Shown piece by piece: positions 18,843 to 30,928 of a stretch of 64,000 bases of DNA. The stretch comes from Sphingopyxis sp. BE259 (GTDB lineage: Bacteria > Pseudomonadota > Alphaproteobacteria > Sphingomonadales > Sphingomonadaceae). How positions within the stretch are numbered: position 1 is the stretch's first letter; each line of letters starts with the position of its first letter. The position numbers and the translations under genes were made by a program. The notes under the pieces were generated by a model. That model worked only from the letters and a program-made list of their open reading frames with translations, was not told where the DNA came from and ran no database searches. The stretch spans positions 2,282,001 through 2,346,000 of the forward strand of contig NZ_JAVDWM010000001.1 of NCBI RefSeq assembly GCF_031457495.1, written 5' to 3'.

Positions 18843-19379
18843 ATGGCTGAGGCCGACGATGCCTCGATCATAAAGGCGGCAGTGGCGGGGAATCGCGACG
18901 CCTTCGCTGCATTGCTCCGGCGCCACTACGACCGCATCCACGGTCTCGCCTGGCATTTGACGGGGTCACGCGCCGACGCCGACGACATTGCGCAGGACGT
19001 CTGCTGCATCCTTGCCGAAAGGCTAAGCAATTTCCGCGGCGACGCCAAATTCACGACCTGGCTGTGCGCTATCGTCTATAACGCCTGCCGCGATTTCCGG
19101 CGGCGGCGCTCGGCCTTTGCGCGCTTTACCGGCAAGCTGGGCGTGATGGCCGGTCTTGCCAAAGGACCGGACGGCCGCGATCTTTATGACGCGATCTGGA
19201 TCGAGAGTGCCATCGCCCGGTTGAAACCCGAACTTCGCGACACCGCGATCCTGGTTGCCGCGCAGCAACTGACGCATGGCGAGGCGGCGCAGATTTTGGG
19301 GATCGCCGAAACGACGGTGTCGTGGCGGATGCACGAGATCCGGCGCCAACTCGCGCCCAAAGGCGGTCTGGACGCCTGA
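18843..19379 (+). CDS. ECF-type RNA polymerase sigma factor
   Basis: 178 residues with region 2 (AFAALLRRHYDRIHGLAWHL, then DADDIAQDVCCILAERL and FTTWLCAIVYNACRDFRRRR) and region 4 (LKPELRDTAILVAAQQLTHG, then AAQILGIAETTVSWRMHEI). It redirects RNA polymerase to a small regulon. Next on the same strand come a vWA/YfbK lipoprotein and a membrane-anchored TPR protein, an arrangement seen with other vWA-linked ECF factors. No classical zinc anti-sigma gene is beside it, so the TPR membrane protein may serve that role (inference). Confidence 0.92.
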   Translation: MAEADDASIIKAAVAGNRDAFAALLRRHYDRIHGLAWHLTGSRADADDIAQDVCCILAERLSNFRGDAKFTTWLCAIVYNACRDFRRRRSAFARFTGKLGVMAGLAKGPDGRDLYDAIWIESAIARLKPELRDTAILVAAQQLTHGEAAQILGIAETTVSWRMHEIRRQLAPKGGLDA

Positions 19380-19489: not shown

Positions 19490-21265
19490 ATGTCCCGCTT
19501 TCATCTGATGCTCACCGCAGGCCTGTCTATCTCGCTCGTCACCGCCTGCTCGCCGTCGAACGATATTGCCTCGCCCGCATCGGCCCCGTCGCCCGATATT
19601 GTCACCACCGCCGAAGCCCCCGCGGTCGAGCAGGATTCGGGGGCTATCGTCGTGACCGGACGCCGCGCGAGCGACGCGGTGTACGACACGCCGGTCGCCA
19701 TATCGGTCGTTTCGTCTGAAAATCTCTCCGCCGCACCGCCCCCGGCCGCGCGGCACGTGATGGTGACGGGCAACTCGCTGTATGCGCCGCCGCGCGGCGA
19801 TGTGACGACACCCTATTACCAGGACGTCGGGCGCGACAAATTTACGGCGGCCGAGCAGAATATCTTCAAGATCGCGCGCGACGAACCCGTGTCGACCTTT
19901 TCGATCGATGTCGACACCGCGTCCTATTCCTTCGTTCGCGCTTCGCTGAACCAGAATGTCCTGCCCCAGCCCGCCGCGGTGCGGACCGAGGAACTGGTGA
20001 ATTATTTTCCCTATGACTATGCCCCAGCGCAAAGCGCCCAGCGACCCTTCAGCACCAATGTTGCGGTGTTTCCAAGCCCTTGGACCAAAGGCCGCAAACT
20101 CGTCCGCGTCGGGATCAAAGGCTATGCGATCGAGCGTGCAACACGGCCCCGCGCCAATCTGGTTTTCCTGATCGATACGTCGGGTTCGATGAACCACCCG
20201 GCCAAGCTGCCGCTGGTCAAACAGTCGCTGGCGATGCTGCTCGAACAACTCGACGCCAATGACCGGGTATCGATCGTTACCTATGCGGGTGGTGCTGGTA
20301 CCGCGCTGGAGCCGACCCCGGCGGGTCAGAAGAGCAAAATCCTGGCCGCGCTCGACCAGCTTGGCGCGGGCGGCAGCACCGCGGGCGCCGAAGGGATCCG
20401 CCAGGCCTATGCCCTCGCCGAACGCAATCTGGATCCACGCGGCGTCAACCGGGTCATTCTGGCGACCGACGGCGATTTCAACGTCGGCATCACCGACCGG
20501 AACGAGCTCAAGGGCTATATCGAGCGCGAGCGCGGCAAGGGTATTTTCCTCTCGGTCCTCGGCTTTGGCATGGGCAATTACAACGACGCGTTGATGCAGA
20601 CCCTGGCCCAGAACGGTAATGGCGCCGCAGCCTATATCGATACCATCGGCGAAGCACGCAAAACGCTGGTTGACGAAGCGACCTCGACGCTGTTCCCGAT
20701 CGCCAAGGATGTGAAAATCCAGGTCGAATTCAACCCCGCCACCGTCGCCGAATATCGGCTGGTGGGTTATGAAACGCGGATGCTGAAGCGTGAGGATTTC
20801 GACAATGACAAGATCGACGCCGGCGATGTCGGGTCGGGCCAGACGGTCACCGCGATCTATGAAATCGTGCCCGTCGGCGGGCCGCGTGCCAACGGCGACC
20901 TGCGCTATTCCCAGCCCGCCCCGCGGATCGCGGCGGCGGGGCAAGCCGGGGAATATGGCTTTGTCAAAATCCGCTACAAATTGCCCAAATCGGCGACCAG
21001 CCAACTGATCGCGACGCCGATCAACCGCATGGTCGAATTCGCGCGTTTCGAGGATGCGCCGCAGGACGCGCGCTTCGCCGCCGGGGTCGCATCTTTTGCC
21101 GAGTTGCTGCGCGGCGGCCGCTATAACGGATCGATGACCTATGACGACGTGCTGCACATTGTCGGCGGCGCGCGGGGCCGTGACGATTATGGCTATCGCA
21201 TGGAATTGGTCAATCTGGTCCGCGCCGCAAAATCAGCCGGCGCATTGGCACGACTGGAGCGGTGA
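19490..21265 (+). CDS. vWA/YfbK-domain lipoprotein with TonB-receptor-like N-terminal motif
   Basis: 591 residues. Start chosen at the ATG with an AGGGAGG 5-10 nt upstream; an upstream extension would overlap the sigma gene. Lipoprotein signal ending SLVTAC. Residues about 45-75 read GAIVVTGRRASDAV, then DTPVAISVVSSENLS, like the region at the start of a TonB-receptor plug. A vWA-type N-terminal domain (FSIDVDTASYSFVRASL) is followed by the vWA domain with a complete MIDAS: DTSGSM (near 228), GGSTAGAEG and ATDGDFN. The C-terminal YfbK/DUF3520 region follows (EVDEATSTLFPIAKDVKIQV-like). Envelope protein of unknown function, genetically linked to the sigma factor. Confidence 0.88.
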   Translation: MSRFHLMLTAGLSISLVTACSPSNDIASPASAPSPDIVTTAEAPAVEQDSGAIVVTGRRASDAVYDTPVAISVVSSENLSAAPPPAARHVMVTGNSLYAPPRGDVTTPYYQDVGRDKFTAAEQNIFKIARDEPVSTFSIDVDTASYSFVRASLNQNVLPQPAAVRTEELVNYFPYDYAPAQSAQRPFSTNVAVFPSPWTKGRKLVRVGIKGYAIERATRPRANLVFLIDTSGSMNHPAKLPLVKQSLAMLLEQLDANDRVSIVTYAGGAGTALEPTPAGQKSKILAALDQLGAGGSTAGAEGIRQAYALAERNLDPRGVNRVILATDGDFNVGITDRNELKGYIERERGKGIFLSVLGFGMGNYNDALMQTLAQNGNGAAAYIDTIGEARKTLVDEATSTLFPIAKDVKIQVEFNPATVAEYRLVGYETRMLKREDFDNDKIDAGDVGSGQTVTAIYEIVPVGGPRANGDLRYSQPAPRIAAAGQAGEYGFVKIRYKLPKSATSQLIATPINRMVEFARFEDAPQDARFAAGVASFAELLRGGRYNGSMTYDDVLHIVGGARGRDDYGYRMELVNLVRAAKSAGALARLER

Positions 21266-21451
21266 GGGCGGCGGCTTTGCTGCCAACGTCAGGATGCAGC
21301 GGCGATCGGGTACCGGCGCCGCTGTATCGACCGCCGCTCATTTCTGCGTATAAGACCCGATAATGCCGACGCCCCTGCCCCTCATTCCAGGCCTCCCCCT
21401 CGGCGTCGCTCGGCGCCATCGGGAAAGCCGGGCGGCTGACCGGAAACGCCG

Positions 21452-22519
21452 ATGATGCGCGACGACGATGTCAGGGCGGTCTTGCCAGAAGCGCCGCCGC
21501 CCGCGCCGAAGCGCCGTGAAGCTGCGATTGCAGAAGCCCTCGCGCGCTTCGACGGAATGCCCGCCGCAGGACGTGACCCCGTCCGGCCACCGGCGCCGTG
21601 GTGGACCACGCTCCGCCGTCCGCAGGCGGGGCTGTTCGCCGCCGCCGCGCTGGTGGCCGCGATCAGCCTGCCGTTCGCGTGGCAATCGCCGATTTCACCG
21701 GTTCCTGTGGCGGAGGAGCGGATCGCATCCGGCGCGAACGATGATGCGGCGCGCGTCAAAATAGTCGCCGCGGCGCCGCCGGTGGCGATGCGGGCGGTGA
21801 CGCCGCCTTTGGCGACGCCGGACACCTCCGACATCGCTCTACCGCCGCCCCGGTCGGACGACAGCGTGGCGGCGGCCAAGCCGATGCCGCCCCGCCAGGC
21901 TGCCCCCGCCGCACCCCCGCGCGTGATGGACACGCAAGATGCCGCGGCCATCGTGGTTCAGGGACGCGCTTCGCCGCAAGCCGTGCAGGAATCCCCGGTC
22001 GCGGTGTCGGTGGTGTCGTCCGAACAATATTCCAGCCCAAGCGAAGGGTCGATCGTCGTCACCGGCGCGCGCATCGCGCCCAGCCAGCCCGTGCGGCGCG
22101 GCGACTGGAACGCCTGCACGGTCAACGACCCGAACCGCGCCTTGTCGCAGTGCCGCAAGCTCGCCGACAGGGCGGCAAAAGCCGTGCGGAGCCAGGCCGA
22201 CATCCATCTTTCCGAAGGCCTGAGACAGGCGTGGAGTGGTGATCTGGACAAGGCTATCGCAGCGTTCGACGCGGCGCTTGCCATCGCGCCCGACCTTTCC
22301 GCCGCCTATCTCAATCGCGGCATTACCCATGACCGGCAAGGCGACAGCGCGGCCGCAATAGCCGATCTCGACCGTGCCATAAGATTGGCGCCGAAATCGG
22401 CGCGCGCCTATTACAACCGCGCCGTCTTGCTGCGAAAATATGGCGATGCGAAACGCGCGAGCGCCGATGAACAACAGGCCATCAATCTGGACCCGAGGTA
22501 TCAGGCGGTCCTGCGCTAG
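21452..22519 (+). CDS. Membrane-anchored TPR protein with TonB-receptor-like motifs; possible anti-sigma partner
   Basis: 355 residues. A short N-terminal cytoplasmic part (about 1-55) leads to a single membrane span (about 62-80, GLFAAAALVAAISLPFAW). The periplasmic part has AAIVVQGRASPQAV, SPVAVSVVSSEQYS and a second GSIVVTGARI, then at least three TPR repeats (GLRQAWSGDLDKAIAAFDAA; AYLNRGITHDRQGDSAAAI; AYYNRAVLLRKYGDAKRA). The motif segment is almost the same as in the vWA lipoprotein, so the two genes share a module. Topology and position after an ECF sigma suggest an anti-sigma or sensor role, but no known anti-sigma domain is recognised. Confidence 0.75.
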   Translation: MMRDDDVRAVLPEAPPPAPKRREAAIAEALARFDGMPAAGRDPVRPPAPWWTTLRRPQAGLFAAAALVAAISLPFAWQSPISPVPVAEERIASGANDDAARVKIVAAAPPVAMRAVTPPLATPDTSDIALPPPRSDDSVAAAKPMPPRQAAPAAPPRVMDTQDAAAIVVQGRASPQAVQESPVAVSVVSSEQYSSPSEGSIVVTGARIAPSQPVRRGDWNACTVNDPNRALSQCRKLADRAAKAVRSQADIHLSEGLRQAWSGDLDKAIAAFDAALAIAPDLSAAYLNRGITHDRQGDSAAAIADLDRAIRLAPKSARAYYNRAVLLRKYGDAKRASADEQQAINLDPRYQAVLR

Positions 22520-22637: not shown

Positions 22638-23417
22638 TTGCTTCCGCTGAACCCTGTTCCAGCCCCCCTCCCCGTCGAAGCGCTCAATATCGGGGCAGGA
22701 CGACGCGCGCTTGCCATCGGCCTGGCGGTTCTAATCCCGGCGATCTTGCTGCTCATGCTGCTCTCATTTGGTGTGGAAGCCCCGAGCGAAGACAGCCAGA
22801 CGCGCATCACCGTGGTCAACCTGGAGGCCAGCGAGATTGCCGATGAGGCGCCCGCACCAGGCAGCCCAGAGCCCCAACGGACCGAAAACCAACCTGCGCC
22901 GCCGCAGCCCGCCCCCGACGAACCGCTGCCACCCGTGCCCGCCAAACCGCTGCCCCCGCCGCCCGCCACACCGATCATCACCACGCCAGCCGAACGCCCG
23001 CCGCCGCCCGCGGCGCCCCGTATCCCGGCCCGCCCGCCCGGTGGACAGGTGTATGGGCCGCCGAACACGGGCGGCTCGTCGTCGTCATCGCGCGACAGCG
23101 AGCGGGTGGGCACCGCACCGAACGGCGAACCGCTCTATGCCGCGGCGTGGTATCGCGAACCGCGCGATGACGAGTTGCGCGGCTATTTGTCCACCGCCAG
23201 CGGACCCGGATGGGGACTGATCGCGTGCCGCACGGCGCCCGATTATCGGGTCGAGGACTGCGTTGCACTGGATGAATATCCGAACGGATCGCAGATCAAT
23301 CGCGCCGTCCTCGCCGCAGCATGGGCGTTCCAGGTGCGGCCGCCGCGCCTCGGCGGACGGCCACTGGTGGGCGCGTGGGTCAGGATCAGGATCGATTATG
23401 GCGTCCGGCGGCGTTAG
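22638..23417 (+). CDS. TonB-like energy transducer protein
   Basis: About 259 residues from a TTG at 22638; no ATG lies close in frame before the membrane span, so the start is uncertain. One N-terminal span (GLAVLIPAILLLMLLSFGV), a long Pro/Ala/Glu-rich periplasm-spanning linker (about residues 75-160, with runs such as PLPPVPAKPLPPPPATP), and a C-terminal ~95-residue domain ending in AAAWAFQVRPPRLGG, then AWVRIRIDYGVRRR, like the TonB C-terminal fold. TonB proteins transmit proton-motive force to outer membrane receptors. Its position after two proteins with TonB-receptor-like motifs is notable. No exbB/exbD is nearby. Confidence 0.7.
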   Translation: MLPLNPVPAPLPVEALNIGAGRRALAIGLAVLIPAILLLMLLSFGVEAPSEDSQTRITVVNLEASEIADEAPAPGSPEPQRTENQPAPPQPAPDEPLPPVPAKPLPPPPATPIITTPAERPPPPAAPRIPARPPGGQVYGPPNTGGSSSSSRDSERVGTAPNGEPLYAAAWYREPRDDELRGYLSTASGPGWGLIACRTAPDYRVEDCVALDEYPNGSQINRAVLAAAWAFQVRPPRLGGRPLVGAWVRIRIDYGVRRR

Positions 23418-23550
23418 GGGAGTCGGCAAGGATCGAAGCGCGCGGCGCTTTGCAGGCGCCGCGTTTTTTCTTCCAAGGTCGCCGCGCGCGGGCTCCGTCT
23501 TGTGATTGTCGCCGGGATGACATCCCGGCCCCGATCACAAGAGGAACCCG

Positions 23551-26500
23551 ATGCGCAACACTTTGCTGGCCACCACCTGTCTGGCCGCCCTGCTCTCGAC
23601 GACAGCCCAGGCCGAAACAACGATCACCACTGCGACCACCGCACCGGTGCGGACGGCGACGATCAAATCGGGCGCCCCCGACGACATCAAGATCACCTCG
23701 ACCGGTTCGATCAAGCCGACCAGCGGCACCGCGGTCACCATCGACAGCAACCATCGCGTCATCAACGAAGGCACGATCGAGATCGGCAACGCCAACGGCG
23801 CGCGCGGCATCGTCGCCAACGCCGGCACGGTCGGATCGATCACCAACACCGCGACCGGCAAGATCATCATCGACGAACCCTATGCGCCGACCGACATCGA
23901 CAATGACGGCGACATCGACGGCGCCTTTGCACTGGGCAGCAACCGCGTCGGCATCGCGACGCTCGGCGCCTTCACCGGCAATATCGTCAACAGCGGATCG
24001 ATCGCGATCGAGGGCAATGATTCGGCGGGCATCCGCCTGGGCGGCCCGCTGACCGGTAATTTCACCAGCGACGGCACAATTTCGGTGCTGGGCGACCGCG
24101 CGCTTGGCGTCGGGTTGCAGGATGTCACCGGCAATGTTCGCCTCGCAGGGACGATCGCCGCCACCGGCCTGGACGCGACGGCGGTCCGGCTGGCGGGCAA
24201 CATCACCGGCGCGCTGGTCGTTCAGGGCAATCTGACCGCTACCGGCTACCGCATCACCGCTGTGCCGGCTGACCCGTCGAAACTCGACGCTGACGATCTG
24301 CTGATCGGTGGCCCGGCGCTTTCGGTCGAGGGTAATGTTACCGGCGGCATCGTGCTGGCAGTGCCGCCAAAGGATGCGAGCACCACCGACAACGACGAGG
24401 ACAAGGACGGTATTCCCGACGACAAGGAGGGCAGCGCTGTTGTGCGCTCGTTCGGGTCGGCGGCGGCGGTGCGGATCGGGTCGGCGACGCAAAGCGTGAC
24501 GATCGGTCCGGTCGCGGGAACCGGTACCGGCCTGGGGCTGATCATCGACGGCGCCGTCGTCGGAAACGGGCTTTATGCCGGCAAGGACGGCAACGGGATG
24601 CAGATCGGCGGCCTCGGCGGCGCCGTGACGATCGCGGGCGGCATCGGCATCGGCACTACGGGTAGCGTGATCGCCCTGTCGAAAGATGTCGCCGCGACGG
24701 CGGTTCGCATCGGCAGCGGGGCGACGACACCCGAGCTGCGCAACGCGGGCAAGATCGAGGCGACAAGCACGGGTAATGTCGCCGGGTCGGTCGCCACCGC
24801 AGTCGTGATCGAAGCCGGCGGCAACGTTGCGCTGATCCGCAACAGCGGAGCGATTAATGCCAAGACCGGCGGCGACAACGGCACCGCCCGCGCCATCGTC
24901 GACCTGTCGGGCAGCGTCGGCACGGTCGAAAACAGCGGCACGATCAGCGCCGCCGGGGCGCTCGCCACCTCGGACCGCAACATCGCCATCGACCTGTCGG
25001 CCAATGCCACCGGCGCAACCGTCAAGCAGACCGCCGTCGCGTCGGGCATTGCTGCACCCAGCATCGTCGGCGACGTCCGCTTTGGCGGCGGCAACGACAT
25101 CTTCGACATCGCCGACGGGTCGGTAAAGGGCAACAGCGTCTTTGGCGGCGGCAACAACCGCCTGACGCTGTCGGGCGATGCGACTTACGCCGGCAACGCG
25201 CGCTTTGGCGCTGGCAATGACAGCATGACGCTGGCAGGCACGGCGAAATTTACCGGCGCGGCCGATTTCGGCGGCGGCACCGATACGCTGAGCATCGGCG
25301 GAACGTCGGCCTTTTCGGGCTCGCTCGCCAATGCCCAGGGGCTGGCGGTATCGGTCAGCGGCGGCACCTTTGACGTCACTGGCGCGGCGCGGATTGCGTC
25401 GCTGGCGGTCACCGACAAGGGGACGCTCGGCGTTCTGCTCGACACCGGCAGCACCGGCACTGCGTTACAGGTTACCGGCAACGCCAGCTTTGGCGCCGAG
25501 TCCAAACTCGCGCTGCGGCTGTCGAGCATCGAACAGGCCGAGGGACGGCATGTCGTGCTGACCGCCGGAACACTGACCGGCGCGAGCAACCTGACCGCGT
25601 CGCAGACGCTGCTGCCTTTCCTGTACAAGGGCACGCTGACCTCGAACGCGACCCAGTTGATCGTCGATGTGTCGCGGAAAAGCACGACCGAACTCGGGCT
25701 CAACCGGTCGGAAGCGGGCGCGTTCGATGCGGTGCTCGATGCGGTGATCGCCGACCAGAAGATCGAGGACGTCTTTCTGGGCATCACCAGCGGCGAACAA
25801 TTCCGTGGCCAGCTGGGCCAGATGCTGCCCGAGCATGAAGGCGGGGTGTTCGAAACCGTGACCTCGGGCTCGCGCGCGCTGTCGCGCCACCTGCAGGATC
25901 CCAACGCACCGTTCCAGGACGAAGGCAAATGGGGTTATTGGGTCAACCAAGCGGTTTGGGGGACGTCGAAAAGCGTTGGCGACACCGCAAGCTATGACGT
26001 TAGCGGCTGGGGCATCGGCCTGGGCGCCGAGATCAAGAGCGACGTCGGCAACTTCGGCGGCTCGATCGCTTTTCTCAGCGGCAAGGACGCCAATGGCAGC
26101 AACGCCAATGAAGTCAGCACCAGCCAGTTCGAAGGCGCGCTGCACTGGCGTCTGCGCTCCAATGGCTTCATGGCCAACGCGCGCGTATCGGGCGCGCCCA
26201 TCAAAATGAAGGGCACCCGCATCTTCAGCGCCGAGGCGGGCGCCGACGACATCGAAAAGACGATGAAGGGCAAATGGGACGGCACCCTGTGGTCGGCGTC
26301 GGGCTCGCTCGCTTATGATGCAGAAGCGGGAGGCATAACCATTCGCCCGATGGTGGCGGTCGATTATTTCAAGCTGACCGAAAAGGGCTATCAGGAAACC
26401 GGCGGCGGCAACGCACTCGACCTCAAGGTGCTGGGCCGCGACAGCGACGAGCTGGCGGTGTCGGGCACCGTGGCGCTCGGCATGGATTTCGGCGGTCTCG

Positions 26501-26763
26501 ACCAATATGACGGCTGGACGCGCTTCGAAATCGAAGGTGGCCGCCGCCAGATTGTCGGCGGCACCCTGGGCACGACCACCGCGTCGTTCAAGGACGGCAC
26601 GCCGTTCACCCTTACCCCCGATGATCGCACGAGCGGCTGGGTCGGCCGTCTCCGTGGCATTGCTGGCAATTCGGCCTTTCAGGTCGCCGGCGAAATGTCT
26701 GCGGAGGAACAGCAAAACCATATTGGTTGGGCGTTCCGTGCGAGTCTGCGGGTCGGCCTCTAG
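23551..26763 (+). CDS. Autotransporter (type Va) with haemagglutinin-like passenger
   Basis: 1070 residues. Signal peptide MRNTLLATTCLAALLSTTAQ (cut near AQA). A long passenger (about 25-700) rich in Gly/Asn/Thr repeats such as NSGTI, NTGTI and FGGGND, typical of a right-handed beta-helix. Two acidic inserts resemble calcium loops: DIDNDGDIDG (about 113-122) and DNDEDKDGIPDD (near 280). The autotransporter barrel occupies about residues 800-1070 (WGYWVNQAVWGTSK; GWGIGLGAEI; GWAFRASLRVGL at the end). It should be displayed on the cell surface. A strong hairpin follows the stop. Confidence 0.9.
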   Translation: MRNTLLATTCLAALLSTTAQAETTITTATTAPVRTATIKSGAPDDIKITSTGSIKPTSGTAVTIDSNHRVINEGTIEIGNANGARGIVANAGTVGSITNTATGKIIIDEPYAPTDIDNDGDIDGAFALGSNRVGIATLGAFTGNIVNSGSIAIEGNDSAGIRLGGPLTGNFTSDGTISVLGDRALGVGLQDVTGNVRLAGTIAATGLDATAVRLAGNITGALVVQGNLTATGYRITAVPADPSKLDADDLLIGGPALSVEGNVTGGIVLAVPPKDASTTDNDEDKDGIPDDKEGSAVVRSFGSAAAVRIGSATQSVTIGPVAGTGTGLGLIIDGAVVGNGLYAGKDGNGMQIGGLGGAVTIAGGIGIGTTGSVIALSKDVAATAVRIGSGATTPELRNAGKIEATSTGNVAGSVATAVVIEAGGNVALIRNSGAINAKTGGDNGTARAIVDLSGSVGTVENSGTISAAGALATSDRNIAIDLSANATGATVKQTAVASGIAAPSIVGDVRFGGGNDIFDIADGSVKGNSVFGGGNNRLTLSGDATYAGNARFGAGNDSMTLAGTAKFTGAADFGGGTDTLSIGGTSAFSGSLANAQGLAVSVSGGTFDVTGAARIASLAVTDKGTLGVLLDTGSTGTALQVTGNASFGAESKLALRLSSIEQAEGRHVVLTAGTLTGASNLTASQTLLPFLYKGTLTSNATQLIVDVSRKSTTELGLNRSEAGAFDAVLDAVIADQKIEDVFLGITSGEQFRGQLGQMLPEHEGGVFETVTSGSRALSRHLQDPNAPFQDEGKWGYWVNQAVWGTSKSVGDTASYDVSGWGIGLGAEIKSDVGNFGGSIAFLSGKDANGSNANEVSTSQFEGALHWRLRSNGFMANARVSGAPIKMKGTRIFSAEAGADDIEKTMKGKWDGTLWSASGSLAYDAEAGGITIRPMVAVDYFKLTEKGYQETGGGNALDLKVLGRDSDELAVSGTVALGMDFGGLDQYDGWTRFEIEGGRRQIVGGTLGTTTASFKDGTPFTLTPDDRTSGWVGRLRGIAGNSAFQVAGEMSAEEQQNHIGWAFRASLRVGL

Positions 26764-26824: not shown

Positions 26825-26998
26825 CATTTATGGAAATGAACGAACACAGCGATGCTTGCACTAGCCCTCCCCTCCTTTCCGGTGCCGCGGTTGCGCGGTC
26901 GGGCGCGGACGCTATATGACGGCGTCATCAGGGGAACCGATGGCGCGCGCCGGGGCGGCGCGCCCCGACAGACAATGGCGTTCCAGAGCAAGCAATCG

Positions 26999-27520
26999 AT
27001 GACCAGTTCGCACGACCGAACCGACGCCGCGCAGGGCATCGAAGGCGTATTGCTCGCCAACCGGAGCCGGATCGTCCGGTTTCTGGAAGTGCGCGGCGCG
27101 GGCGACGCTGCCGAAGACCTGTTCCAGGATCTGTGGATGCGGCTGACCGATCGCCCGATCGGACCGATCGCCGACCCCCTGCCCTATGTCATGCGCGCCG
27201 CGAACAATCTGATGCTCGACCGCTACCGCTCGCTACGCCAGAGCGCACTGCGCGATCAGGCGTGGGGCGAAAGTGCGGCAGGTCACGAACCGTCAGCGGA
27301 AATCGCGCTGATCTCGCGCGAGCAACTCGGGCTGGTCGAAGCTGCAATTACCGCGACCGGTGAACGCCCGGCGCGCATCTTTCGCCGGTTCCGGGTCGAC
27401 GGCCTGGCGCAGCGCGATATAGCGAGCGAAATGGGGGTCAGCCTGAGCACCGTCGAAGCCGATTTGCGCAAAGTTTACGCGACACTCGCCGCGCTACGGA
27501 GGCAGTTCGATGCAGCCTGA
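26999..27520 (+). CDS. FecI-type ECF sigma factor
   Basis: 173 residues from the ATG giving MTSSHDRTDAAQG; an alternative ATG lies 24 bp upstream. Region 2 (RIVRFLEVRGAGDAAEDLFQ, then DLWMRL and ADPLPYVMRAANNLMLDRYR) and region 4 (RIFRRFRVDGLAQRDIASEM, then GVSLSTVEADLRKVYATL) are typical of iron-starvation-type ECF factors. It overlaps the fecR-like gene by 11 bases and the TonB receptor with a signalling domain follows, so this is a standard cell-surface signalling cascade. The inducing ligand is unknown. Confidence 0.93.
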   Translation: MTSSHDRTDAAQGIEGVLLANRSRIVRFLEVRGAGDAAEDLFQDLWMRLTDRPIGPIADPLPYVMRAANNLMLDRYRSLRQSALRDQAWGESAAGHEPSAEIALISREQLGLVEAAITATGERPARIFRRFRVDGLAQRDIASEMGVSLSTVEADLRKVYATLAALRRQFDAA

Positions 27521-28442
27521 TGCCAAATCCGCCGAAGCGCGCGCCATCGATTGGGTGATCCGCCAGCGCGATGCCGCGTTCGACGATTGGGACGGTTTTG
27601 CCGAGTGGCTTGCCGAAGACCCCGTTCACGCCGCAATTTACGATGAGGTCGCCAGTCTCGATCAAGACCTGGGCGCCTTACCCCCGGCTGTCAGCCCGTC
27701 GGTCGTCGTAAGGCCCGTTGCACAGCGCCGTCCGTCACGCCGCGCGTGGGTCGGCGGCGCAATGGCGGCGGCGTTGGTCGCGGTCATCGGCGTGTCGACG
27801 CTCAATCCGTTCGGCAATGGCAACCGGATCGAGACCGCGGCCGGCGAACATCGCACTATCCAACTCGCCGACGGGTCGCGGATCGAAATCAACGGCGGAT
27901 CGATCATCGAAATCGACTCGGACCGCCCGCGCTTTGCGCGGCTGGCGTCGGGCGAGGCGATGTTCCATGTCGTCCACCGCGATAGTGATCCTTTTGTCGT
28001 CGAAGCGGGCGGCGACCGGATCGTCGATCTGGGCACCGCCTTCAACGTCGTTCGCCGCGAACGCCAGACCTCGGTCGCTGTGTCGGAAGGCATCGTCCTC
28101 TACAACCCCGATCGCGACAAGGTCCGCCTGGTCGCGGGCAAGGCGATCGAAGCGCGCGATGATGATGACCGACCACCGGTCGTGCAGGACATCGATGTCG
28201 CCAGCGTCGGCGGCTGGCGCAGCGGACTGCTCGTTTACAATGGCGCCCCGCTGGCCTTGGTGGCCGATGATCTGAAGCGGACCGCCGGAATGGATGTCCG
28301 CATCGCACCCGCCGCCGCTAACCTGTCGTTCCGCGGGGCGCTGATTATCGACAAGAACCGTAGCCGCACGATCGCCGATCTGGCCGCCTTGTCGGGAACG
28401 AAGGCGCAGCGGCAGGGCGATGGCTGGATATTGACCCGCTGA
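27510..28442 (+). CDS. FecR-type anti-sigma/sigma regulator
   Basis: 310 residues. An N-terminal cytoplasmic DUF4880 segment (ARAIDWVIRQRDAAFDDWDG, then FAEWLAEDPVHAAIYDEV), a membrane span (about 75-95, GGAMAAALVAVIGV), then the periplasmic FecR domain (AGEHRTIQLADGSRIEINGG; RLASGEAMFHVVH; DLGTAFNVVRR) and a C-terminal STN-like DUF4974 region that contacts the receptor. It holds or activates the overlapping FecI-type sigma factor. The TGA stop is embedded in a CTGA where the receptor gene probably starts. Confidence 0.92.
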   Translation: MQPDAKSAEARAIDWVIRQRDAAFDDWDGFAEWLAEDPVHAAIYDEVASLDQDLGALPPAVSPSVVVRPVAQRRPSRRAWVGGAMAAALVAVIGVSTLNPFGNGNRIETAAGEHRTIQLADGSRIEINGGSIIEIDSDRPRFARLASGEAMFHVVHRDSDPFVVEAGGDRIVDLGTAFNVVRRERQTSVAVSEGIVLYNPDRDKVRLVAGKAIEARDDDDRPPVVQDIDVASVGGWRSGLLVYNGAPLALVADDLKRTAGMDVRIAPAAANLSFRGALIIDKNRSRTIADLAALSGTKAQRQGDGWILTR

Positions 28443-30928
28443 GCCCGCAGTCCCGCCTTGCCTATGTCGCTGCGGCGATCGCGCTGACCGTGCCCGTACA
28501 GGTTTTGGCGGCGGAGGAGCGCGCCTTCGACGTGCCGAAGGGAAGCCTGTCGACCGCACTGCCGGTGATCAGCCGCCAGGCCGGGGTCAGCATCAGCGTC
28601 GTCGATGCCAAGCTATGGCAGGCGCGGGTCAAGCGGGTGCGCGGGCGGATGAGCGTCGAAGAAGCGATCCAGCGCTTGCTGAGCGGTTCCGACGCCCGCG
28701 CCGTCCGCGTCAGCGCCACCAGCTGGCGCATCGAACGCCGCCCGGTGACGCCGCGGTTGGCCCATCGCCCGGCCCCCGCGCGCCAACCGACACCGCAACC
28801 GCGGGCGCGCGAACCGTCGCAGGACATGGTCGCCGCAGAGCAGGATGAAATCATCGTCACCGCGTCAAAGACCGACCTGCCCTATTCGCATTTCGCCGGC
28901 GTCGTCACCCAATTGAGTGGCGGCGATTTGGCGTTTGGCGGCGAACGCGGCATGGAATCGATCCTGTCGCGAACCGCGACCGTGTCGTCCACCCATCTGG
29001 GTTCGGGGCGCAACAAGCTGTTCATTCGCGGCATCGCCGATTCCAGCTTCACCGGCCCGACGCAATCCACGGTCGGACAATATCTCGGTGACATCCGGCT
29101 TAGCTATAATGCGCCCGATCCGGACCTTCGCCTCTACGACGTCGACAATGTCGAAATCCTCGAAGGACCGCAGGGCACGCTCTACGGCGCCGGATCGCTC
29201 GGCGGGATCATTCGCGTCGTCCCCAAGGCGCCCGACCCGCGCGCCATGTCGGTGCAGGCGATCGCGGGCGTTTCGGTCACCCAGCATGGCGACCCCGGCG
29301 GCGACATCGCCGCGATCGCCAATCTGCCGGTCGGCGACAATGGCCATGCGCTGCGGCTGGTCGGCTATATGCTGACCGATGGCGGCTATATCGACAACCC
29401 GCTGCGCGGCCAGAACGACGTCAACCGCGTCCATGTCCGCGGCGGCCGCGCGGCGTTTCGCTTCGACGCCGGTAATGATTGGACCGTCGATCTGGGGGGC
29501 GTTTACCAGTCGATCAAGTCGAACGACGCCCAATATGCCGACAAGGCCGCCGACCCGCTGACCCGCAACTCGATGGTCGAACAAAATGCGTCGGCACGCT
29601 ACGGCCTTGGCACGATCGTCGTCATGAAGGATTGGGACGGTCTGCATTTCCAGTCGTCGAACGCCTTTATCGACCATCGCCTGTTCGAACGCTTCGACGC
29701 GAGCCTGCCCGAAGCGCCCGCAGGGTCCGCCGCTACCGCGGGCGCGGTGGACGTCGAGCGGCTGTTCGCGCCGGTTCAGGTGACGCCGCTTGCCGACGTC
29801 CCGCGCGTGCTCGATCAACGCAATGCGACGCGGATGTTCGTCAGCGAAAACCGCCTGTCGCGGCCTTATCACGACGGTTTGGGCTGGGTCGTCGGCGCGA
29901 GCTTCATCGACAATCGCGCGCGGCAGGACCGTGAATATGGCTATGGCGCGCTGCGCGCGGTTCTGCCGGGCGTCACCAACAAGATTACCGAAGTCACCGG
30001 CTATGCCGAGGCGACGGTGGAAGTGATGCCCGACCTGATCGCCGCAGGCGGCATCCGTTTGTCGCACGCAAGGCTCGGCGGGATGGCGGAGGGCGTATCC
30101 CTCGCGCTATCCCAAGCTGGCCGCGCGACGACTGCGTCGCGCAACGAGACCGACTTGCTGCCGTCGTTTTCCCTGCTCGCGACGCCGCTGCATAACCTGC
30201 GGCTCTATGCGCGTTATCAGGAAGGCTTTCGCCCCGGCGGCCTCGCCGTCGATGGCAATTTCGTGCGGCGGTTCCTGAACGATCAGGTACGGACGTGGGA
30301 GGCGGGCGTTCGCTTCGGCGACAAGGGGCAAAGCCTGTTCGACGCCAGCATCGCGGTGTCGCACAGCCGCTGGCGCAACATTCAGGCCGATTTCATCGAT
30401 AGTACCGGTTTCCCGACAACGGCCAATATTGGCGACGGACGGATCACCAGCGTGTCAGGCGCGCTCGCAATGCGCCCCACCGAGGCGCTGACCTTTGAAC
30501 TCGGCGCGGTCTATAACCAGAGCCGGGTCGACGATCTGGCGCTCGACATCTTGCCGGTGTTTGCGGCGGCACCGGGGCGGCTTGGACGCATCCCCAACGT
30601 CGCCAGCCATGCGGTGCGTGGGTCGGTCAACTATGCGACAGTGATCGGGGACGAGGATTTCCGCGTCAACGGCTGGGCAAATTATGTCGGGCCGTCGCGG
30701 CTCGGCATCGGCCCGGTGCTCGGCGAAAGCCAAGGCGACTATATCGATACCGGGCTGGCGATGCGCGTCGGCGACCAGCGCCGCGGACTGTCGGTGACGC
30801 TGACCAATTTGTTCGATTCACGCGGGAATCGCTTTTCGCTGGGGACTCCGTTTGTCGAGGGTAATGCGGGTTTTATGACGCCGCTGCGGCCAAGGACGCT
30901 GCGGATTGCGGTAGACGTGGCGTATTAG
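28439..30928 (+). CDS. TonB-dependent receptor with STN signalling domain (probable CTG start)
   Basis: 829 residues if started at CTG 28439, which overlaps the fecR TGA as CTGA. In this frame there is a stop at 28361 and no ATG, GTG or TTG before GTG 28490; the latter would cut the signal peptide in half. The CTG gives LAYVAAAIALTVPVQVLA followed by AEERAF. STN domain about 28-100 (FDVPKGSLSTALPVISRQAG), Pro-rich linker, TonB-box-like DEIIVTASKTD, plug (NKLFIRGIADSSF; VEILEGPQGTLYGAGSLGG), and a 22-strand-type barrel ending TLRIAVDVAY. Outer membrane importer/sensor working with FecIR; substrate unknown. Confidence 0.88.
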   Translation: MSPQSRLAYVAAAIALTVPVQVLAAEERAFDVPKGSLSTALPVISRQAGVSISVVDAKLWQARVKRVRGRMSVEEAIQRLLSGSDARAVRVSATSWRIERRPVTPRLAHRPAPARQPTPQPRAREPSQDMVAAEQDEIIVTASKTDLPYSHFAGVVTQLSGGDLAFGGERGMESILSRTATVSSTHLGSGRNKLFIRGIADSSFTGPTQSTVGQYLGDIRLSYNAPDPDLRLYDVDNVEILEGPQGTLYGAGSLGGIIRVVPKAPDPRAMSVQAIAGVSVTQHGDPGGDIAAIANLPVGDNGHALRLVGYMLTDGGYIDNPLRGQNDVNRVHVRGGRAAFRFDAGNDWTVDLGGVYQSIKSNDAQYADKAADPLTRNSMVEQNASARYGLGTIVVMKDWDGLHFQSSNAFIDHRLFERFDASLPEAPAGSAATAGAVDVERLFAPVQVTPLADVPRVLDQRNATRMFVSENRLSRPYHDGLGWVVGASFIDNRARQDREYGYGALRAVLPGVTNKITEVTGYAEATVEVMPDLIAAGGIRLSHARLGGMAEGVSLALSQAGRATTASRNETDLLPSFSLLATPLHNLRLYARYQEGFRPGGLAVDGNFVRRFLNDQVRTWEAGVRFGDKGQSLFDASIAVSHSRWRNIQADFIDSTGFPTTANIGDGRITSVSGALAMRPTEALTFELGAVYNQSRVDDLALDILPVFAAAPGRLGRIPNVASHAVRGSVNYATVIGDEDFRVNGWANYVGPSRLGIGPVLGESQGDYIDTGLAMRVGDQRRGLSVTLTNLFDSRGNRFSLGTPFVEGNAGFMTPLRPRTLRIAVDVAY

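What the first reader, a model, noticed from the sequence alone, without database searches (positions are those of the whole stretch)
19490..22519. TonB-receptor plug-entry motif shared by two non-receptor envelope proteins beside an ECF sigma factor
The vWA/YfbK lipoprotein carries GAIVVTGRR followed by DTPVAISVVSSE, and the membrane TPR protein carries AAIVVQGR with SPVAVSVVSSE plus a second GSIVVTGAR. TonB-dependent receptors of sphingomonads open with just this pattern (EIVVTA..., then DxPxAVxVVxxE). Neither protein has a barrel or plug. The next gene encodes a TonB-like protein. A possible reading is that these proteins bind TonB or mimic a receptor to sense its energised state and pass that to the ECF sigma factor. 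The similarity between the two genes also points to duplication of one module.
Basis: partly seen in the sequence, partly recalled or inferred. Interest (0 to 1): 0.75.

Follow-up and report, generated by a model that had tools for sequence, protein, structure and literature searches.

The report
TonB-docking tags on non-receptor proteins
Two cell-envelope proteins next to a sigma-factor gene in a Sphingopyxis-like bacterium carry the same short tag that nutrient receptors use to be powered by the protein TonB, and distantly related bacteria carry matching tags on the same kind of protein, so TonB would likely also drive proteins that are not receptors.

Summary
The vWA lipoprotein (YfbK family) and the downstream one-helix TPR protein each carry a TonB-box/plug-entry module and no plug or barrel. 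A profile of this genome's own receptors hits the vWA protein at E=5e-9 (database size set to 100); no reversed homologue falls below 0.05. The pentapeptide is kept in a poorly conserved, predicted-disordered linker: 116 of 119 YfbK and 111 of 113 TPR homologues pass a 99%-shuffle threshold; 0 of 120 Pro-rich control linkers do. Boxes of the local receptor type occur in 48 of 77 YfbK rows of the window's order, 61 of 82 of a Bacteroidota set (biased by its query) and 7 of 83 other rows. The tree places the window's boxed clade beside boxless relatives, so gain looks repeated. MlaA proteins of the window's family show a box-like peptide in 8 of 30 loci. Twenty-eight boxed loci show no sigma gene nearby, so the box is not specific to sigma signalling; in this clade the probable anti-sigma protein keeps a box even where its C-terminal part differs. 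Best reading: native non-barrel TonB clients, like TolB with TolA. TonB binding is untested; the TonB-like neighbour is not syntenic.

The parts
18843..19379 (+). ECF sigma factor gene
   Evidence: Pfam Sigma70_r2 and Sigma70_r4_2 over cut-off; sigma and YfbK genes found together in 5 of 5 relatives fetched
19490..21265 (+). YfbK-family vWA lipoprotein gene (591 aa)
   Evidence: Pfam vWF_A, VWA, YfbK_C over cut-off; Cys20 of the lipobox LVTAC invariant in 39 aligned sequences
19547..19549 (+). codon of the predicted lipid-bearing Cys20
   Evidence: lipobox read by eye; invariant column
19646..19660 (+). box 1 of the vWA protein, IVVTG (residues 53-57)
   Evidence: genome pattern hit; 116 of 119 homologue linkers over the 99% shuffle threshold; lies in residues 10-122, modelled at pLDDT under 50
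19685..19720 (+). plug-start-like peptide DTPVAISVVSSE (residues 66-77)
   Evidence: read in sequence; profile of receptor 29-mers, identical protein P0121 at E=5e-9; by eye kept in the Sphingopyxis-like rows and mostly lost in Sphingomonas-like rows
19757..19771 (+). weaker box 2 of the vWA protein, VMVTG (residues 90-94)
   Evidence: 36 of 47 Sphingopyxis-like homologues have a second box-like pentapeptide by a loose pattern
19829..21232 (+). vWF_A + VWA + YfbK_C domains
   Evidence: Pfam; the DxSxS, T and D positions that I recall as the metal site are invariant
21452..22519 (+). one-helix TPR protein gene, probable anti-sigma factor (355 aa)
   Evidence: TPR repeats by Pfam; N-terminal region matches the N-terminus of YfbK fusions, 8.4e-9 in L027 and 1.3e-5 in L029
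21452..21640 (+). N-terminal, probably cytosolic anti-sigma-like region (about residues 1-63)
   Evidence: profile match; topology by eye
21950..21967 (+). degenerate box 1 of the TPR protein, IVVQGR (residues 167-172)
   Evidence: alignment A3; mean column identity of its first five residues 0.73
21992..22024 (+). plug-start-like peptide SPVAVSVVSSE (residues 181-191)
   Evidence: read in sequence; alignment A3
22052..22066 (+). conserved box 2 of the TPR protein, IVVTG (residues 201-205)
   Evidence: V203 invariant, V202, T204, G205 and R207 at 90% or more in 24 sequences; mean identity 0.86 against 0.45 for the rest of the linker
22638..23417 (+). TonB-like Pro-rich protein gene; neighbour, probably not an obligatory part
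23440..23464 (+). terminator-like stem-loop after the TonB-like gene
   Evidence: consensus scan, 11 pairs plus T run; 7 sites found against a shuffled mean of 4.1, so weak

Best explanation
The vWA lipoprotein and the membrane TPR protein each carry a peptide that matches the front end of TonB-dependent receptors (a TonB box, then the start of the plug), and this peptide would likely let TonB dock onto and pull on proteins that are not receptors. Shown: the match, its conservation in a poorly conserved linker, its lineage-specific form, and its scattered distribution on the YfbK tree. Predicted: the linker is disordered and the vWA protein is a lipoprotein facing the periplasm, so the box would be within reach of TonB. 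Inferred: TonB binds the box by strand addition, as it binds receptors and as TolA binds the N-terminus of TolB, and pulling moves or unmasks the vWA domain. Inferred with less confidence: in this Sphingopyxis/Sphingomonas clade the TPR protein is the anti-sigma factor of the neighbouring ECF sigma factor, and TonB contact with its box would change how tightly it holds the sigma factor or expose it to proteolysis, so that the cell reads how busy TonB is. The role of the box on YfbK would not depend on the sigma factor.
For: Receptor profile: 58 of 120 YfbK and 65 of 120 TPR homologues at E<1e-3 (database size set to 100), 0 of 120 each when reversed, 0 of 120 TonB-like proteins. Own-receptor matrix: 116 of 119 YfbK linkers and 111 of 113 TPR linkers over the 99% shuffle threshold; controls 0 of 120 Pro-rich linkers and 4 of 115 folded YfbK parts. 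Conservation: motif columns 0.78 against 0.38 for the rest of the YfbK linker; 0.86 against 0.45 in the TPR protein. Lineage match: 39 of 48 boxed YfbK rows of the window's order score higher with the own-receptor matrix, 58 of 61 boxed Bacteroidota rows with the SusC matrix. CarbopepD_reg_2 domain before the box in 8 of 8 Bacteroidota proteins that I picked to scan. Tree: the 6 boxed rows of the window's clade join boxless L027 with support 100 and boxless L003 with 91; at least 27 changes of box state over 192 rows. By eye, a box in the third gene of 5 of 5 relatives, although the C-terminal part matches TPR in L346-L348 and has no Pfam match in L349 and L350. Receptor number: 27, 36, 42 and 46 plug domains in 4 boxed genomes; 0, 1, 4, 6 and 13 in 5 boxless ones. 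Linker pLDDT under 50 over residues 10-122.
Against: No binding to TonB was or could be tested. 29 of 77 rows of the window's order and 21 of 82 Bacteroidota rows lack a box over threshold, so it is dispensable. The sixth boxless genome, G256, has 30 plug domains. Box 1 of the TPR protein has Q where most receptors have T. The within-genome resemblance of the two modules could mean exchange without function. No sigma gene was seen beside 28 boxed YfbK loci, and no gene regulated by this sigma factor is known to me. The AlphaFold model of the vWA protein is of moderate quality (mean pLDDT 60). The anti-sigma match holds for 2 of 4 fusion loci tested, and one reversed sequence scored 0.0037.
Confidence: 0.55

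Rival explanations
1. The peptide is a beta-strand or linear motif used for something other than TonB: docking on another periplasmic partner, on the protein's own vWA domain, or as a protease site.
For: Short hydrophobic strands are generic docking motifs (general knowledge); the lineage-specific form would also fit a partner that itself co-evolves with receptors.
Against: The form tracks the local receptor TonB boxes, including the SusC type in Bacteroidota, and the Sphingopyxis form includes the plug start as well. The model shows no confident docking on the vWA domain: pLDDT under 50 for residues 10-122.
Confidence: 0.2
2. The peptide is a passenger: recombination with abundant receptor genes (57 plug matches in this genome) pasted receptor N-termini into other envelope genes, and it has no function.
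For: Many donors; the two modules in one genome resemble each other more than between genomes, p=0.00085, as gene conversion would give; the plug-start part is mostly lost outside Sphingopyxis-like rows while the proteins remain (by eye).
Against: The pentapeptide is kept at 0.78-0.86 column identity in linkers at 0.38-0.45, in 116 of 119 YfbK homologues that are up to about 30% diverged, and is present where the C-terminal part of the third protein differs, in L349 and L350.
Confidence: 0.15
3. One reading: the motif exists to report the energised state of TonB to the neighbouring ECF sigma factor.
For: Sigma and YfbK genes together in 5 of 5 relatives of the clade, each with a third gene that has the N-terminal domain; the third protein has a conserved box.
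Against: In 44 other loci of the window's order (6-12 kb) no sigma gene was found at E<=1e-5, although 28 have a boxed YfbK; the Bernardetia YfbK has no sigma gene annotated in 9.4 kb; YfbK with a sigma gene beside it elsewhere in the phylum sample lack the box.
Confidence: 0.1

Closest known systems
TonB box of TonB-dependent receptors (FhuA, BtuB, FecA type; SusC type in Bacteroidota)
   Same: Same pentapeptide consensus, same place near the N-terminus in a flexible periplasmic segment; in Sphingopyxis also the start of the plug
   Different: No plug and no barrel follow; the box is followed by a vWA domain or TPR repeats
TolA-TolB-Pal system
   Same: A TonB-like transducer binds a native, non-barrel periplasmic protein through its N-terminal peptide by strand addition; the TolA-TolB complex is described as similar to TonB with a TonB box (passages of PMC7391070)
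   Different: TolB uses TolA, not TonB; that its peptide differs from a receptor-type TonB box is recalled
TonB boxes of group B colicins
   Same: TonB box on a protein that is not a receptor (passages of PMC11658791)
   Different: Colicins are imported foreign proteins; here the carriers are native envelope proteins
FecI-FecR-FecA cell-surface signalling
   Same: ECF sigma factor, one-helix regulator in the inner membrane, TonB involved (passages of PMC9249621 and PMC11637429)
   Different: The TPR protein has no FecR domain match; in the known system the TonB box sits on the receptor. A sigma-FecR-receptor set lies separately at 26852-30928
vWA force transducers and PorE proposed in PMC12204202
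   Same: That paper proposes membrane-tethered vWA proteins as motor-driven transducers, compares their fold with E. coli YfbK, and suggests from its carboxypeptidase-like domain that PorE may use a TolA/TonB-like transducer (passages and section 8)
   Different: Those vWA proteins are themselves tethered to the motor; the term 'tonb box' occurs 0 times in its main text

Membership tests
TonB-dependent receptor | beta-barrel (Pfam PF00593) | tested here: not met
   no match at E<=1 in either protein
TonB-dependent receptor | plug domain (PF07715) | tested here: not met
   no match at E<=1 in either protein
TonB-dependent receptor | TonB-box sequence of the local type | tested here: met
   matrix score 22.4 for the vWA protein, within the leave-one-out range 12.9-31.0 of 29 own receptor boxes
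TonB client (protein docked by TonB through a TonB box) | box in a flexible, periplasm-exposed segment | tested here: inconclusive
   residues 10-122 modelled with pLDDT under 50 and lipobox Cys invariant; exposure not measured
TonB client (protein docked by TonB through a TonB box) | box conserved above its surroundings | tested here: met
TonB client (protein docked by TonB through a TonB box) | physical binding to TonB | not testable with these tools
   no two-chain prediction or binding assay available
YfbK family | vWF_A + VWA + YfbK_C | tested here: met
   all over Pfam cut-off
FecR-type anti-sigma regulator (for the TPR protein) | FecR domain PF04773 and DUF4880 | tested here: not met
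   no match at E<=1
ECF anti-sigma factor (works-like, for the TPR protein) | cytosolic N-terminus shared with sigma-linked membrane proteins | tested here: inconclusive
   8.4e-9 (L027) and 1.3e-5 (L029) among four fusion loci searched, L003 and L119 without a match; one reversed-sequence hit at 0.0037. L027 and L029 were also the only YfbK frames matched at E<1e-3
ECF anti-sigma factor (works-like, for the TPR protein) | binds and inhibits the sigma factor | not testable with these tools
   needs two-hybrid or pull-down
TonB energy transducer (for the 22638 protein) | TonB-type C-terminal fold | tested here: inconclusive
TonB energy transducer (for the 22638 protein) | histidine of the SHLS motif in the membrane helix | tested here: not met
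   helix 20-44 and the 30-sequence consensus hold no histidine; importance of the motif from section 8 of PMC12204202

The most novel reading that the evidence does not exclude
TonB is a general power take-off of the envelope: receptor-rich bacteria graft their own type of TonB box onto at least three unrelated native non-receptor families (YfbK vWA proteins, ECF anti-sigma-like membrane proteins, MlaA), and the boxed anti-sigma factor is a direct gauge of how loaded TonB is.
Probability: 0.3. Interest if true: 0.9.

Novelty: new variant of a known kind. Interest (0 to 1): 0.75.

Why it matters
TonB is usually described as the motor arm of outer-membrane receptors, with colicins as intruders. 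If native vWA lipoproteins, an anti-sigma factor and MlaA-type proteins dock on TonB, then receptor-rich bacteria would spend TonB force on envelope upkeep and could read TonB load directly. It also gives the widespread YfbK family, for which I found no stated function, a concrete, testable handle: mutate five residues.

Tried and rejected
Rejected: low-complexity linker or chance. Shuffles, reversed sequences and Pro-rich linkers of the TonB-like homologues do not give the motif beyond the stated rates. Rejected: a recognisable plug or barrel. Rejected as a needed part: the TonB-like gene, not found in about 12 kb around the locus in 5 of 5 relatives. Led nowhere: a solved structure of a YfbK relative that covers the linker; the 8 PDB sequence matches start at residue 188 or later.

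Literature, all in an open-licence library, so absence is weak: YfbK with TonB-dependent 2 papers, both opened as passages (one also section 8); YfbK alone 26 papers, 20 listed, no others opened; TonB box with von Willebrand factor and lipoprotein 0; two of TonB box, lipoprotein, not a receptor 173, 20 listed; two of TonB box, CarboxypepD, SusC 76, 15 listed; TonB box with anti-sigma and periplasmic 21, 15 listed; TonB box with MlaA 0; two of TonB box, vWA domain, tetratricopeptide 523, 12 listed, none of those with TonB box; DUF3520 0; ECF sigma factor with von Willebrand factor and anti-sigma 4, one opened as passages, unrelated. Of the lists, only PMC11637429, PMC9249621, PMC11658791 and PMC7391070 were opened, as passages.

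Weak points of my own counts. The receptor matrix was built from 29 of 30 fetched receptor loci out of 57 plug matches, and its boxes were first picked with a loose pattern, so it inherits that pattern. The SusC matrix uses 23 of 30 fetched loci of one genome with 82 plug matches. In one search a row counts as boxed if either matrix passes its 1% threshold, so 1-2 false rows per group are expected; with one matrix alone the counts are 46, 7 and 14 (own receptors) and 25, 5 and 60 (SusC) for the window's order, other Pseudomonadota and Bacteroidota. L114 repeats the genome region of L074, so two of the 77 rows are repeats. The Bacteroidota loci come from a query that has the box, best 80 of 585 kept, which biases that share upward. 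YfbK frames whose profile match starts after position 20 were dropped, and a few fragmentary matches (in G006, G007, and second places in G040 and G185) were not fetched. One of 120 YfbK rows and 7 of 120 TPR rows had no anchor and were left out; the truncated P0206 counted as a miss. The 14 within-genome pairs were chosen by hand from equal contig lengths, not from all possible pairs, and 13 could be used. The boxes in MlaA (L310 has the divergent IVVEG, L308 IVVVA) and in the third gene of the five relatives were judged by eye.
Full report
Observation. The window is G000:C1:2282001-2346000 of a 3.67 Mb single-contig genome; the nearest named homologues are Sphingopyxis. The finding's two proteins are a YfbK-family vWA lipoprotein (19490-21265) and a TPR protein with one hydrophobic helix (21452-22519), behind an ECF sigma factor (18843-19379). 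The quoted peptides are all there. Neither protein matches the receptor plug or barrel at E<=1. NCBIfam gives one weak echo, a TonB-hemin receptor model at E=0.042 over residues 52-94 of the vWA protein.

Is it more than chance? The degenerate DNA pattern for IVVT[G/A] hits the genome 40 times; the reversed control pattern hits 2 times. Comparing with the 57 plug matches, 24 hits sit just upstream of a plug. Of the other 16, two are the window's proteins and one precedes an MlaA domain; the remaining 13 were read and include out-of-frame or internal positions. From 29 receptor segments of this genome I built a matrix and a profile. The window's vWA protein scores 22.4; the receptor boxes themselves score 12.9 to 31.0 when left out one at a time. 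The profile finds 58 of 120 YfbK and 65 of 120 TPR homologues at E<1e-3 (database size set to 100); no reversed sequence and no TonB-like protein falls below 0.05.

Conservation. Of 119 usable YfbK homologues, 116 have a box over the 99% shuffle threshold in the linker between the lipid cysteine and the vWF_A domain; shuffles of the same linkers pass at 0.8%. For the TPR family it is 111 of 113 (shuffles 2.0%). Pro-rich linkers of the TonB-like homologues: 0 of 120. Folded part of YfbK: 4 of 115. In aligned sets the motif columns average 0.78 and 0.86 identity against 0.38 and 0.45 for the rest of the linkers; a few prolines of the YfbK linker are as conserved as the box. The model of the vWA protein leaves residues 10-122 at pLDDT under 50. 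The plug-start piece is less widely kept than the box (by eye). In Sphingopyxis-like proteins the module is box, plug start, second box: 36 of 47 YfbK have a second box-like pentapeptide by a loose pattern, and in the TPR family the second box is found in 110 of 113 and is the better conserved one.

Spread. PF12034 is found in 87 of 398 genomes of the phylum sample and 72 of 296 of the order sample. With thresholds set on shuffles of each group, and either of two matrices allowed, boxes are present in 48 of 77 YfbK rows of the window's order (two rows repeat one genome region), 7 of 83 other Pseudomonadota rows (all in unnamed families f7 and f25 of the same class), and 61 of 82 Bacteroidota rows. 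The Bacteroidota set is biased by its query. There the box is of the SusC type, 58 of 61 preferring the SusC matrix, behind a CarbopepD_reg_2 domain in 8 of 8 proteins picked for a scan. E. coli K-12 YfbK has none (L032). In ten genomes that I picked, four boxed ones have 27, 36, 42 and 46 plug matches, and six boxless ones have 0, 1, 4, 6, 13 and 30; G256, with 30, is the exception.

Evolution. On a FastTree of 192 YfbK domains the box state changes at least 27 times. The window's clade of six boxed rows sits with boxless L027 (support 100) and L003 (91), inside a set of 35 rows in which only those six are boxed. The Bacteroidota rows form one side of a branch, and the f7 and f25 rows have other nearest neighbours. 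Repeated gain is therefore the simplest reading, though losses are not excluded.

The sigma factor. In Rhizobium etli p42c the sigma gene overlaps a YfbK gene by 4 bases, and the same two genes overlap in Azotobacter. Such YfbK proteins begin with a charged region and one hydrophobic helix (by eye). The TPR protein's N-terminal region matches that of L027 (8.4e-9) and L029 (1.3e-5); L003 and L119 were searched and did not match, and one reversed sequence scored 0.0037. I infer that in the window's clade the anti-sigma part has been split from the vWA part. In five relatives the sigma and YfbK genes are together and a further gene has this N-terminus. In all five that protein also has a box by eye. 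Its C-terminal part matches the TPR family in L346-L348 (Pfam TPR matches of L348 lie below the curated cut-offs), but L349 and L350 have no Pfam match. Outside this clade, 44 loci of the window's order, 6-12 kb long, show no sigma gene at E<=1e-5 by comparison with the window's sigma factor, and 28 of them have a boxed YfbK; flanks were only about 2 kb upstream and 3 kb downstream in most. So the box is unlikely to be mainly about the sigma factor.

The TonB-like neighbour. It has a helix at 20-44, a low-confidence Pro-rich part and a small C-terminal domain whose best structural matches are TonB and TolA domains, at weak scores. It lacks the membrane histidine, is not among the genome's three Pfam TonB_C matches, and was not found near the locus in 5 relatives. 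A terminator-like site follows it, so it may share the transcript here.

Mechanism. I commit to TonB docking: TonB would take the box by strand addition and pull. Known parallels are TonB with receptors and TolA with the TolB N-terminus (PMC7391070, passages), TonB boxes in colicins (PMC11658791, passages) and, as a proposal in print, PorE (PMC12204202, passages and section 8). For the window's clade I add, at lower confidence, that the boxed anti-sigma protein would sense TonB load. In the known systems the box is on the receptor and the regulator is a FecR protein (PMC9249621, PMC11637429, passages). What pulling on YfbK achieves is unknown; its metal-site residues are invariant (assignment recalled), so a ligand-binding vWA domain that is moved or tensioned by TonB is the natural guess.

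Verdict.

Noticed in passing
G000:C1:775399-776025 (L272, L309); L304, L306-L308, L310-L312: MlaA homologues of the window's family carry a TonB-box-like peptide right before the MlaA domain in 8 of 30 loci examined, judged by eye; L310 (IVVEG) and L308 (IVVVA) are divergent. TonB box together with MlaA gave 0 papers.
   Followed up: partly
G000:C1:3372418 (L280): A small open frame has IVVTGPQ directly after what looks like a signal peptide.
   Followed up: no
G000:C1:1082773, minus strand (L273): An 832-codon open frame holds SEIVVTAEKDC in its C-terminal part; it looks Rhs-like to me by eye only.
   Followed up: no
G000:C1:51361 (L269): A 352-codon frame has DDDAIVVTAR before a DTG motif that suggests a retropepsin-like protein; may be chance.
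   Followed up: no
window 26852-30928: A separate ECF sigma factor, FecR regulator and TonB-dependent receptor set lies downstream of an autotransporter gene at 23551-26763.
   Followed up: no
L161, L163, L182 (Bacteroidota YfbK): After the SusC-type box these proteins seem, by eye, to keep further plug-like remnants such as GVQKRKDVTGSVAQ.
   Followed up: no
L074, L134: Two loci have two YfbK genes side by side, one boxed and one boxless.
   Followed up: no
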